17,980 bases of DNA from Candidatus Latescibacterota bacterium (GTDB lineage: Bacteria; JAAXHH01; JACQVL01), in assembly GCA_016209865.1 (NCBI GenBank), contig JACQVL010000275.1, positions 1 to 17,980 on the forward strand. The letters are read 5' to 3'. Positions 171 through 12,532 of the stretch are shown here, piece after piece (position 1 is the first letter of the stretch; each line of letters opens with the position of its first letter). The notes under the pieces are model-generated. The model worked only from the letters and a program-made list of their open reading frames with translations. It had not been told where the DNA came from and did not search any database. The position numbers and the translations under genes are program-made.

Positions 171-1027
171 TTGCAACGCCCCGTTCATCGTGGCCCGGCG
201 CCGGGACGATGTGGCGCGATCAACGCGGGTTTACCGTCGTCGAGCTGCTGTCGGCCAGTCTCCTGACGCTGTGTTTTTTCGGCTGGCTGACGTATGCCTA
301 TGTGACCGTGACGCGCGCGACCCTGGCCTGGCAGGCTGAATCGGCCGTGGCGGCCATGACGCAGCGCGCCGTCGCGACGCTGACACGAGTCGTGGAGCGT
401 GCCGTGACGCTGGAAGGGTTGTCGACCTCTGGCGTCACGCTCTACCGGACCGACGGCCGGACGATCATCTATCAGCAACGATCCGATGGGGTGTACCGGG
501 ATGAGCATATCTGGAGCGGCGGTGGAGTCACGCTGACGGCCCTACAACTCACGGGACTGTGGGATCAGACCGATGCGGTCTCGGGTCTGCAAGTCCTGAG
601 TGAGGCTCCTCCCACGACGCCCCCGACCGTACCGCCCGCATGGCTGCGCGTCACCGTGACCGGGCAAGGCCATGACCGGACGTACACCGTCCAAACGCTT
701 GTCCGCCTCTACTGTCAACGTCCCGTGCTTCTCCGTCCTTCTGTTTTCACCGATCACCGATCACCGACCACCGCTCTACCCCCCCACGCTCTGCCGCTCG
801 ATCTTGATCTCCGGATGAGCTTTGATGTTCAACCGGAAGTACACGCCCTGCCCGAACCCGGTCGGCGTCCACCGGACGACCATCTCCCAGCAGTGCAGGT
901 CGCGGTAAAAACTGAACGTCTGAGAGACGAAACGCCTCAACCGGATGTCGTAGTTCATCGAGTGCTCCACCCGCACGCTCCGGGTCAGACGGTTCGACAG
1001 ACGAATGGCGTCGGTGACACTCGCTAA
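167..1027 (+). CDS. Prepilin-type N-terminal cleavage/methylation protein (GspJ/PilW-like minor pseudopilin)
   Basis: The start at 167 overlaps the upstream stop (ATGA), so translation is probably coupled; a start 87 bp earlier in the same frame would overlap the upstream gene. Residues 18-26 (DQRGFTVVE) form a prepilin peptidase site: cleavage after G21, with F22 becoming the methylated first residue and E26 the conserved +5 glutamate. A hydrophobic helix (about 22-50) follows, then a beta-rich domain to about residue 190. This fits a minor pseudopilin of type II secretion or type IV pili, processed in the inner membrane. The frame does not stop where the family would be expected to end (about 190-200 residues). 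It runs through a 7-bp repeat array at 747-774 and then 252 bp antisense to lptD before a TAA. Residues after about 193 have no pilin character and are probably an accidental extension. The fold and start are well supported; the true C-terminus is doubtful. Confidence 0.8.
   Translation: MIATPRSSWPGAGTMWRDQRGFTVVELLSASLLTLCFFGWLTYAYVTVTRATLAWQAESAVAAMTQRAVATLTRVVERAVTLEGLSTSGVTLYRTDGRTIIYQQRSDGVYRDEHIWSGGGVTLTALQLTGLWDQTDAVSGLQVLSEAPPTTPPTVPPAWLRVTVTGQGHDRTYTVQTLVRLYCQRPVLLRPSVFTDHRSPTTALPPHALPLDLDLRMSFDVQPEVHALPEPGRRPPDDHLPAVQVAVKTERLRDETPQPDVVVHRVLHPHAPGQTVRQTNGVGDTR
747..774. repeat. Heptamer array, TCACCGA family (4 units)
   Basis: Three perfect TCACCGA units in a row and a fourth diverged one (CCACCGC). 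The array lies between the natural end of the pseudopilin domain and the lptD stop codon at 776-778. It is translated in the pseudopilin frame as TDHRSPTTA. The same family recurs in the same orientation at 4305-4339. Confidence 0.9.
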
Positions 1028-3181
1028 GCTGAACCGGGCTGACGTGTTGGCCAGATGGCTCCCGGTGCGAAACCCGGCGGCCGGGAAGAGGCGACTGATC
1101 GTGTACCGGTGGGTCACCGTCACCGTCCACGGGCCTTTGATCTGATCGAACCGTTCGTCGAACCGGTCGTTCCCGAACGCCGACGCGCTCCGTCCCGGCC
1201 CGCCCGCTGCATCGAAGTATCCTTGTCCTTCCAATCCCACCGACTGGCCCGGCAGGCCGGAGACGGGAAGGCCTGGGGTGAAGCCTGCTCCGCCCTGGCC
1301 GTGCAGGTTGATGGACGTGGTAACGTTCACACTCTTCAGCCAGGGCGGCCGCAACGTCGTCATGTCCGGTTCGTAGAAATCATGGGTGAAGTTGGCGTCG
1401 ACGTTGACCGACCTGGCCGGGATGCGGACGGAGGTGAGCAGGTCGGCGAGCTTGCGTGTCGTCGCCTGGAAGTTGTACCCGGAGGAGACGTTCACGAACA
1501 GCAGGTCGAATTTTCGCTCGCTCTCCCCCTTCAGCGTCTTGGCCTGGAGGACGTTGGCCAGGGTGAAGTTGACCGACCGGGAGACGACCGCAAACCGCTG
1601 CAGCGGTCGATCCTGGCCGGACTGCGTGAACGACAGCGACGGAGTCACGACGTGCCGGATCGCCTGCAGCCGGCCGAGATGCGGCTGGAACAGGCCGTAC
1701 AACGTCGTGTTCGCCTGGAGGCCGGCGTTGTACGCCCCCTGCCGGCCCAAGGAATCTGACCGTCCTGGCCGGGTCTCCCGGACCCACATTTCCGTATAAT
1801 CAGACCGGGGCTGCATCCTGAACCATCCGCCGAGCGTCTGCTGGGACGACAGGTTGAACCGCTGTGTCAGGTCCTGACGGGTCTGAGTGGTGCCCTTCTT
1901 CTGATCCAGAATCGTCGCGTTGTAGCCGTAGAGGATCGACTGGTACCAGCGCGGCGGGGCCAGCCGGTCGGGCACCTGGCTCCCCGGGCTGGGCAGTCCG
2001 CCCAGGCGGCGGCGCTGGGTCGGGGCGATGATCGGCCGGGTGGGCAGCCGGAGACTCAGCGTCGTCGTCGGCCGGACCAGCTTCCCGGTCAGACTACTCG
2101 TTTCGGAGACGGTGAGGTTCAGGCTCTTCTGCCCCCACGTCTTGTCCACGGAGAAGTTCGACCGGAGCGCGCGCTGGAGGCGTCCGGGGTCTGTCCCGCG
2201 CGTCGTCGACTGGACGAACGAGAGGCTGTTCGCAAACTCCCCCCGTCCGGAGACCCGCAGGTCCGGCCGCACCTCCTGCCAGTGGCTGGCCTGCACGTCC
2301 CACCCGGTCGTGTGGAAATCGTAGCCGCTCCGGTACGACCCGGTGATCAGCCCGTTCAGCCGCCGGGTCTGCGCGTACCGGAGCGCCGGCCGGAGGAACA
2401 TCCCCTGATTCGCCGAGAAATCCCCGCTGAGCTTGAAGTCCCAGTACTCACTCCCCGCCCAGTAGTACCCGACGTTCCGCACGTACGTCCCCTCCGTCGC
2501 TCCCGTCCCGTACGTGGGCATCGTAAACCCGGAATGCCGTCCCCGCTTGAGGGGCAGGACGTAGAACGGAACGTAGAAGACCGGCACCGGGCCGAGGTAG
2601 CCGACGACCGACCGGACGATGGCTTTGTCGTTGGGGATGATCTTCAACTGCTTGCTCCGGAGATGGTAGTGTTCGTGGCCGGTCAGGTTGCAGGTGGTGT
2701 ACCGGCCGGAATCCACATTGAGGATGTTCTCCGCGTCCATGCGGATTTGCTCGCCCTCGAAGAATCCCTGCTCGTACTGCGTCCGCCCTCGGAAGATGCG
2801 CCCGCGCTTCGTCCTGATGCTGTATATCATCCGGTCGCCGACGAGCGTGCCCTGGGGGTCCTGGAGGGTCGGGAGCTGGTTGCTCGCGCGTCCGGTGGAG
2901 GAATCCAGTCCCCCTTCGGCGGTGAGGATCTCGGTCCGCGTGTCGAACCTCACCCGCCCGGCGGTCAGCGTGATGTTCTCGTACTTGATCGTCGTATTCC
3001 CGCTGAGGACGAGGGTGCTATCGTCCACGCTGTACGACACCGAATCAGCGGCGTAGGTGATCGTCTCCGAGGTGTCCGGGACGGTTATCTGGGCGAACAC
3101 GCGGGAGGGAAGGGCGAGGGTGAGAAGGAAGAGAAGGGAAAATAGCAGAGGGGCACCTGCTATTTTTTCGCCCGCATTCAT
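776..3181 (-). CDS. lptD: LPS assembly outer-membrane protein LptD
   Basis: An 801-residue outer-membrane beta-barrel protein that, with LptE, inserts lipopolysaccharide into the outer leaflet. Residues 1-30 are a signal peptide (hydrophobic LLFSLLFLLTLAL, probable cleavage after VFA). Residues about 38-150 form an OstA/LptA-like jellyroll that would receive LPS from the periplasmic bridge. The central part carries hallmarks of the family: GPVPVFYVPFYVLP (197-210), then RHSGFTMPTYG and the YYW segment near 239-241. The rest, rich in alternating aromatic and polar residues, is the barrel. 'DLHCWEM' and the closing 'HPEIKIE' stretch recall FCB-group LptD. Only C164 and C764 are cysteines, so the four-Cys disulfide pattern of E. 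coli LptD is absent. The start ATG overlaps the stop of the upstream ABC ATPase gene by 4 bp. No lptA, lptC or lptE is visible here. Confidence 0.88.
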   Translation of the reverse strand: MNAGEKIAGAPLLFSLLFLLTLALPSRVFAQITVPDTSETITYAADSVSYSVDDSTLVLSGNTTIKYENITLTAGRVRFDTRTEILTAEGGLDSSTGRASNQLPTLQDPQGTLVGDRMIYSIRTKRGRIFRGRTQYEQGFFEGEQIRMDAENILNVDSGRYTTCNLTGHEHYHLRSKQLKIIPNDKAIVRSVVGYLGPVPVFYVPFYVLPLKRGRHSGFTMPTYGTGATEGTYVRNVGYYWAGSEYWDFKLSGDFSANQGMFLRPALRYAQTRRLNGLITGSYRSGYDFHTTGWDVQASHWQEVRPDLRVSGRGEFANSLSFVQSTTRGTDPGRLQRALRSNFSVDKTWGQKSLNLTVSETSSLTGKLVRPTTTLSLRLPTRPIIAPTQRRRLGGLPSPGSQVPDRLAPPRWYQSILYGYNATILDQKKGTTQTRQDLTQRFNLSSQQTLGGWFRMQPRSDYTEMWVRETRPGRSDSLGRQGAYNAGLQANTTLYGLFQPHLGRLQAIRHVVTPSLSFTQSGQDRPLQRFAVVSRSVNFTLANVLQAKTLKGESERKFDLLFVNVSSGYNFQATTRKLADLLTSVRIPARSVNVDANFTHDFYEPDMTTLRPPWLKSVNVTTSINLHGQGGAGFTPGLPVSGLPGQSVGLEGQGYFDAAGGPGRSASAFGNDRFDERFDQIKGPWTVTVTHRYTISRLFPAAGFRTGSHLANTSARFSLASVTDAIRLSNRLTRSVRVEHSMNYDIRLRRFVSQTFSFYRDLHCWEMVVRWTPTGFGQGVYFRLNIKAHPEIKIERQSVGG

Positions 3182-12491: not shown

Positions 12492-12520
12492 AATATACAC
12501 CAGGTCTGTTGAATCCGCAA
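12492..12520 (-). promoter_or_regulatory. Promoter for the M48 protease gene, -35 box within a heptamer array
   Basis: On the minus strand TTGCGG (12520-12515), 17 bp, TATATT (12497-12492). The -10 is strong and the -35 weak. The leader to the ATG at 12388 would be about 100 nt and includes the palindrome at 12443-12463. Confidence 0.55.
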
Positions 12521-12532
12521 TCCGCAATTGGC
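12512..12532. repeat. Heptamer array, AATCCGC family (3 units)
   Basis: AATCCGC, AATCCGC, AATTGGC, ending 6 bp before the phosphotransferase start codon and supplying the -35 box of the divergent M48 promoter. It shares AATCC with the array at 6623-6650. Confidence 0.75.

What the first reader, a model, noticed from the sequence alone, without database searches (positions are those of the whole stretch)
747..12532. Ten 7-bp tandem repeat arrays, in several sequence families, at most gene borders
Arrays at 747, 4305, 6623, 8378, 8490, 9471, 11417, 11458, 11497 and 12512 all have an exact 7-bp period and 2-5 units, but the unit differs: TCACCGA, ATCCAAA, GGACGAA (and complement), GTGACRA, TGGGCAR/ACTGCCY, AATCCGC. 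Only the period is shared, so a process that makes or keeps 7-bp periodicity is at work, not the spread of one sequence. Heptameric short tandem repeats are known between cyanobacterial genes; their cause is not settled. A period of 7 shifts frame at each unit, so unit gain or loss inside a gene changes frame.
Basis: partly seen in the sequence, partly recalled or inferred. Interest (0 to 1): 0.7.

Follow-up and report, generated by a model that had tools for sequence, protein, structure and literature searches.

The report
Seven-base repeats framing gene gaps
In this uncultured bacterium, short DNA blocks built from 7-letter repeats have been added to the gaps between genes, usually facing inwards from both sides so that the gap can fold into a hairpin, and because dozens of different 7-letter words obey this one rule the usual explanations (random copying slips, or four-stranded G-DNA) do not suffice.

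Summary
The window has 9 period-7 arrays (TRF score >=34) against 0.04 expected. In 1.04 Mb of the same genome there are 310, and 285 are non-coding although 86% of the DNA is coding. The reading needs correcting: the arrays share more than a period. The G-rich strand leads away from the nearer gene in 221 of 249 arrays. Of the arrays that leave a stop codon, 118 of 141 start within -20..+15 nt of it. Consecutive arrays in one spacer face each other 71 times and point apart once; 62 of the 71 are one family. The arrays are phase-locked dispersed modules, not random slippage products. Eleven orthologous junctions with arrays are all 32-186 bp longer than in relatives; array-free junctions are unchanged (p=2e-6). 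A distant genome with mostly other units obeys the same rule. The rule was published for one G-quadruplex-forming unit in Xanthomonas (PMC4692102), but arrays without any GGG obey it here, 161 of 183. Best reading: REP/BIME-like intergenic hairpin elements whose arms are heptamer arrays, gained by insertion. The mobilising enzyme is unknown; RNA function is inferred.

The parts
747..773 (-). TCGGTGA array (CGGTGGT-type family), 3.9 units; begins 2 bp beyond the stop of the LptD-like gene (776-3181, - strand), G-rich strand leaving the stop
4305..4329 (-). TCGGTGA array, 3.6 units; overlaps the stop of the VanZ-like gene (4326-5510, -) and fills much of the 44-bp gap to the MalK-like ABC gene
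6622..6653 (-). GATTTTG array, 4.6 units with one TAG-containing variant unit (GATTTTA); 19 bp beyond the stop of the metallo-beta-lactamase-fold gene (6673-7797, -)
8379..8406 (+). GGACGAA array, 4 units: left arm of an inverted pair; lies downstream of a promoter-like TTGACA-17-TAATGT (from about 8332)
8490..8519 (-). GGATGAA/GGACGAA array (reads TTCGTCC on +), 4.3 units: right arm of the pair; ends 7 bp before the inferred start of the M28 peptidase gene (8527-9444)
8379..8519 (.). Whole hairpin element: GGACGAA arms enclosing 83 bp; predicted RNA fold -55.8 kcal/mol with the arms paired
9470..9493 (+). GTGACGA array with the commonest variant order G-A-G (AGTGACGAGTGACAAGTGACGAGT); 25 bp after the M28 stop at 9444; single arm
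11417..11438 (+). TGGGCAA/G array, 3.1 units: left arm in the convergent gap between the Rad52-like gene (stop 11378) and the M48 peptidase gene (stop 11540)
11458..11471 (-). Two ACTGCCY units; part of an inverted repeat with the sequence around 11404-11417 (CCCACCGGGCAG..CTGCCCGGTGGG)
   Evidence: fold
11497..11517 (-). AGGCAGT array (reads ACTGCCY on +), 3 units: right arm, 22 bp from the M48 stop
12512..12528 (-). GCGGATT array, 2.4 units, 22 bp before the inferred start of the APH-like gene; weak alone

Best explanation
The arrays are the arms of small non-coding, dispersed intergenic hairpin elements that work like REP/BIME elements. In the best-resolved family one arm is a defined module: A-run, GC or TC, 3-4 heptamer units of which the second tends to be variant, a partial unit, A-run. 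Two modules of one family face each other across roughly 20-120 bp of otherwise unrelated DNA, sometimes with a TTCCCGC..GCGGGAA palindrome inside. SHOWN: the polarity rule, the abutment on stop codons, the family matching within a gap, the phase-locked ends, and that gaps with arrays are longer than orthologous gaps in relatives, that is, DNA was gained between a stop codon and the next ribosome-binding site, even inside a ribosomal-protein operon and zwf-pgl. INFERRED: the DNA arrives by copying and insertion of modules by an unidentified activity; purifying selection leaves it only at gene borders; and the transcribed spacer folds into an intercistronic or UTR stem-loop that can act like REP/BIME or ribosome-termination structures (mRNA end protection, processing, or insulation of neighbouring cistrons).
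For: Polarity 221/249; stop abutment 118/141; facing pairs 71 vs 1, same family 62/71. Whole-genome pattern: 24 facing hits at 15 loci, 0 opposite. Same family across a gap 48/52, across a gene 4/11, chance 35%. Phase-locked starts and A-run flanks. Orthologous gaps with arrays longer by 32-186 bp in 11/11, array-free gaps median -3 bp (n=29), p=2e-6; zwf-pgl 147 vs 9 bp, lptF-lptG gap much longer than the 5 bp of G011. Paired elements fold far more stably than shuffles, 60/60. Same grammar in G195 with mostly different units, 40/47.
Against: Interiors share almost nothing but the palindrome, so these are not copies of one whole element. No target duplication was detected. The two arms of a pair are no more alike than random arms of the family. 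No Y1 transposase or reverse transcriptase was found in the 83%-complete assembly. About half of the gaps with arrays have only one. In two divergent gaps promoter-like sites lie between the arms, so both arms may not share a transcript.
Confidence: 0.6

Rival explanations
1. Replication slippage with a preferred 7-nt step (the idea of Mrazek et al. as cited in PMC4679880 and PMC4692102): intergenic words are expanded to period 7 and tolerated because they are non-coding.
For: Sharp period-7 excess in non-coding DNA, many different units, 3-5 units per array.
Against: Slippage does not predict strand polarity relative to genes, matched families on both sides of a gap, fixed start and end phase, hundreds of copies of one word, or about 100 bp gained between stop and start. 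It may still tune unit number.
Confidence: 0.1
2. G-quadruplex elements: arrays are kept because four G-runs fold into quadruplexes (proposed for GGGNATC in PMC4692102).
For: Same positions and polarity as published; 45 of 310 arrays could form a quadruplex.
Against: Arrays with no GGG at all follow the rule in 161 of 183 cases (p 3e-27); the largest families (GTGACGA, GGACGAA, CGGTGGT) have no G-triplet.
Confidence: 0.03
3. Functional RNA hairpins assembled by selection: stem-loops after stop codons (ribosome termination structures, PMC7518266) or intercistronic processing sites are favoured, and heptamer arrays are a convenient way to build them; no mobile element is needed.
For: Complementary families on the two sides of a gap, arms immediately after stops and before ribosome-binding sites, very stable folds.
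Against: Half of the gaps with arrays have a single arm that cannot pair; arrays also occur before divergently transcribed genes with the same polarity, 18/24; shared modules with fixed ends point to dispersal of copies.
Confidence: 0.17
4. End-healing at breaks: both ends of a break in a gap are extended with heptamers from a template, telomerase-fashion, and are then joined.
For: G-rich strand 3'-outward from both sides, same family on both sides, arms independent in length and variants, unique filler between them.
Against: No RVT_1 and no Ku in the own assembly, although Ku is in G195. Array starts are phase-locked rather than varying with the break.
Confidence: 0.1

Closest known systems
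GGGNATC / GGGGA(T/C)T heptamer repeats of Xanthomonas and Nostoc (Rehm et al. 2015, PMC4692102)
   Same: Period 7, mostly intergenic, nearer to the 5' neighbour on the G-strand, overlapping or just after stop codons, before starts on the antisense strand; about 70 convergent pairs per Xanthomonas genome
   Different: One G-rich family there, explained by G-quadruplexes; here dozens of unit types, most without G-runs, obey the same rule, and gain of DNA at operon junctions is shown against relatives
TAACTGA arrays of Beggiatoaceae, Cyanobacteria and Bacteroidetes (MacGregor 2015, PMC4679880)
   Same: Short intergenic heptamer arrays, 2-6 units, many loci
   Different: Reported for one word, mainly directly upstream of start codons; here both gene ends, several words, inverted pairs
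Heptanucleotide elements of Geobacter metallireducens (PMC2700814)
   Same: Multicopy elements of four (GGACCGG, 49 copies) or five (MTYCTGA, 16 sites) tandem heptamers
   Different: Described as putative regulatory RNA or regulator-binding sites, partly inside genes; polarity and pairing relative to gene borders not described in what I read
REP/BIME elements (established knowledge) and the dRS3/REP-like palindrome found here
   Same: Small dispersed inverted repeats in gaps, including inside operons, transcribed as hairpins
   Different: Arms are heptamer arrays of many families; no RAYT-type Y1 transposase found
Constant-size, variable-sequence tandem repeats of Bacillus (Subirana and Messeguer 2021, PMC8161180)
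   Same: Several families share a repeat length but not a sequence
   Different: Units of 52 or 20-21 nt there; 7 nt here

Membership tests
REP/BIME elements mobilised by RAYT transposases | Dispersed inverted repeats in intergenic DNA, often inside operons | tested here: met
REP/BIME elements mobilised by RAYT transposases | Cognate Y1 (HUH) transposase in the genome | tested here: not met
   PF01797 absent in own assembly, 83% complete
MITE | Terminal inverted repeats | tested here: met
   facing same-family arms, 62 of 71 facing pairs
MITE | Conserved whole-element sequence between copies | tested here: not met
   interiors share only the palindrome, 165 of 170 matches
MITE | Target-site duplication | tested here: inconclusive
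   mean longest direct repeat 3.77 vs 3.60 +- 0.12 in permuted pairs; element ends are not known to the base
Quadruplex-forming heptamer repeats (Rehm et al.) | Four G-runs per array | tested here: not met
   45 of 310 arrays only
Quadruplex-forming heptamer repeats (Rehm et al.) | Position after stops on sense strand, before starts on antisense strand, convergent pairs | tested here: met
Slippage-type simple sequence repeats | Unit number varies between strains | not tested
   no second genome of the species was available
Ribosome termination structures (PMC7518266) | Stable mRNA structure just after the stop codon that lowers re-initiation | not testable with these tools
   position and predicted folding fit; no expression data

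The most novel reading that the evidence does not exclude
One sequence-independent machinery with a 7-nt step, present in unrelated bacteria, lays down inward-facing heptamer modules on both sides of intergenic DNA (for example template-driven extension of both ends of a break, different templates giving different families). This would explain why only period, position and polarity are universal while the words differ.
Probability: 0.12. Interest if true: 0.9.

Novelty: new variant of a known kind. Interest (0 to 1): 0.6.

Why it matters
An excess of heptamer repeats in bacteria has long been noted without an agreed cause. Here one genome carries dozens of heptamer words that obey one rule of place, polarity and pairing, and comparison with relatives shows that the DNA was gained between stop codon and ribosome-binding site, even in highly conserved operons. 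That separates the rule from any one sequence and from G-quadruplexes, argues against slippage as the whole story, and gives a clear target: find what copies a 7-nt-periodic module into gene gaps, and whether the resulting hairpins insulate neighbouring cistrons.

Tried and rejected
(1) Slippage as sole cause: rejected by polarity, matched families, fixed phase and gain of DNA. (2) G-quadruplex: rejected for most families. (3) Gene-cassette model (each gene carries its two arrays): genes flanked by one family on both sides 4/11, at chance. (4) Background strand skew: array-free gaps show none. (5) MITE with target duplication: no significant duplication, no shared interior. (6) Spread of the GTGACRA word itself across phyla: found in 6 of 383 other genomes, but the reversed control pattern occurs about as widely, in 8, so this is no evidence for transfer. 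(7) Reverse transcriptase, Y1 transposase and Ku were sought and not found in the own assembly. (8) 'A stop codon in every frame' as common function: fits GTGACGA (TGA in each unit) but not GGACGAA, CGGTGGT or GATTTTG. (9) Organism name: the genome scan gave one distant MAG contig of an unclassified bacterium.

Full report
OBSERVATION. The ten stated places read as described. TRF finds nine of them (score >=34), against a mean of 0.04 in shuffles of the window. I read 1.04 Mb of it. At equal score, period 7 has 313 arrays against 48 for period 8 and 47 for period 9, and almost none appear in shuffled DNA. In contigs taken without regard to arrays (201 kb) the excess is the same. Genes were called with a home-made periodic Markov caller: stop positions are exact for correctly chosen ORFs, starts are inferred. 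285 of 310 arrays are non-coding although 86% of bases are coding.

GRAMMAR. Taking for each array the strand richer in G, that strand leads away from the nearer gene in 221 of 249 arrays (p 2e-38), and 118 of 141 arrays that leave a stop codon begin within -20 to +15 nt of it. Before start codons the array lies with the C-rich strand on the mRNA in 67 of 71 tandem cases. The rule holds in tandem gaps (182/203), convergent gaps (21/22) and more weakly divergent gaps (18/24), and for 20 minor unit types together (47/53). Array-free gaps have no such skew, and other periods do not show it except weakly period 8 (24/33). Two consecutive arrays in one gap face each other 71 times and point apart once; 62 of the 71 pairs are one family. 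For the commonest family a whole-genome pattern search gives 24 facing hits at 15 loci and none in the opposite order. The gap is the unit: arrays on its two sides match in family 48/52 times, while the two flanks of one gene match 4/11, as expected by chance (35%).

MODULE. Arrays are not random runs. GTGACGA arrays begin at the same base of the unit in 86% of 118 cases, end at one of two neighbouring bases in 82%, and are typically followed by an A-run; before them stands a short A-run and GC or TC. Phase-locking is also strong for GGACGAA (79%) but weaker at the starts of the CGGTGGT, CAGGGGT and CGGGGTT groups (31-41%). In four-unit arrays the second unit is the most variable inner one (71% of GTGACGA arrays have a change there, against 16% in unit 1 and 35% in unit 3), as in AGTGACG AGTGACA AGTGACG. 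The two arms of a pair are no more alike than random arms of the family. Interiors share almost nothing but a TTCCCGC..GCGGGAA palindrome (165 of 170 matches), seen inside 16 of 54 pairs. All 60 folded pairs are more stable than shuffles.

GAIN OF DNA. Against relatives of the same order and one distant genome, 11 orthologous tandem junctions with arrays are all longer here, by 32 to 186 bp; 29 without arrays differ by a median near zero (p=2e-6). In zwf-pgl the relative G011 has 9 bp between stop and start (..TAA GGAGCCGTC ATG) where this genome has 147 bp with two GATTTTG arms after the equivalent C-terminal residues. In the ribosomal-protein cluster the gaps next to the 273-residue gene (rplB by size and synteny, my inference) are 122 vs 26 and 123 vs 64 bp. 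In lptF-lptG the array supplies the last codons and the stop of lptF, and relative G013 has a different heptamer, GTGGGCA, at the same junction.

ELSEWHERE. G195, a genome related only at the level of the domain, has 54 arrays in 316 kb with mostly other words and obeys the rule: 40/47, and 26 of 28 stop-leaving arrays abut the stop. Small samples of G013 (7/8) and G011 (4/4) agree; G002, of the same order, has no period-7 arrays in 100 kb. Nine IMG/VR contigs, 52-66% GC, carry the exact three-unit GTGACGA module, several right after stop-like triplets.

WHAT IS KNOWN. Rehm et al. 2015 (PMC4692102) found the same position, strand and convergent pairs for GGGAATC in Xanthomonas, and discussed them as G-quadruplexes. 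MacGregor 2015 (PMC4679880) describes TAACTGA arrays and cites Mrazek et al. 2007 for the general heptamer excess and a polymerase-footprint idea. Geobacter metallireducens has two heptamer families (PMC2700814). Here arrays without GGG obey the rule 161/183, so quadruplexes cannot be the general cause.

MECHANISM. Most likely (0.6): REP/BIME-like hairpin elements with heptamer-array arms, inserted and kept only between functional borders, transcribed as stem-loops. Gain of DNA and architecture are shown; the copying enzyme and any function are inferred. Y1 transposase, reverse transcriptase and Ku were not found, with the caveat of an incomplete assembly. Formal membership in REP/BIME or MITE is not claimed because defining features were not met.

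LIMITS. One assembly without strains, home-made gene starts, no expression data, organism unnamed, and cross-genome generality rests on one well-sampled outgroup plus the literature.

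Noticed in passing
L019:8292-8423 and L085:11981-12082: 8-bp arrays (ATGGGAGT and its complement) also occur as facing pairs, followed by TTTCGCCT repeats; period-8 arrays show the polarity rule only weakly (24/33).
   Followed up: partly
L043:2326-2362, L047:2150-2232, L026:3458-3496, L011:2419-2455: Another 8-bp class, AACGTTNN or AACGTGNN, with a fixed palindromic core and two free bases per unit; looks like phased binding sites rather than heptamer modules.
   Followed up: no
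L044:8298-8407 interior and about 28 places in 656 kb: A dRS3/REP-like palindrome TGTCATTCCCGCGCAAGCGGGAATCCA is dispersed in gaps, often between the two arms.
   Followed up: partly
window 8369-8378: A two-codon mini-ORF ATG GAG TAA stands directly before the GGACGAA arm, downstream of a promoter-like TTGACA-17-TAATGT.
   Followed up: no
L129:2184-3476 (lptF): The last residues (..ISDK) and the stop codon of lptF are encoded by the GTGACGA array, extending the protein relative to relatives.
   Followed up: yes
L009:2623-2675, L018:4030-4085, L070:4920-4960: Two families can stand in tandem in one gap, the CGGTGGT array nearer the gene and the GTGACGA array inside, as if elements were nested.
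   Followed up: partly
window 10734-11378: A Rad52/Rad22-family single-strand annealing protein is encoded between two array-bearing gaps (Pfam E 1.4e-12).
   Followed up: no
genomes G109, G303 and G342 (control columns): The reversed control pattern, CAGTGAN heptamers, is itself an array family in unrelated genomes.
   Followed up: no
L129:3476-3647 compared with L189 (G013): The same orthologous junction carries different heptamer families in two genera (GTGACGA here, GTGGGCA in G013).
   Followed up: partly
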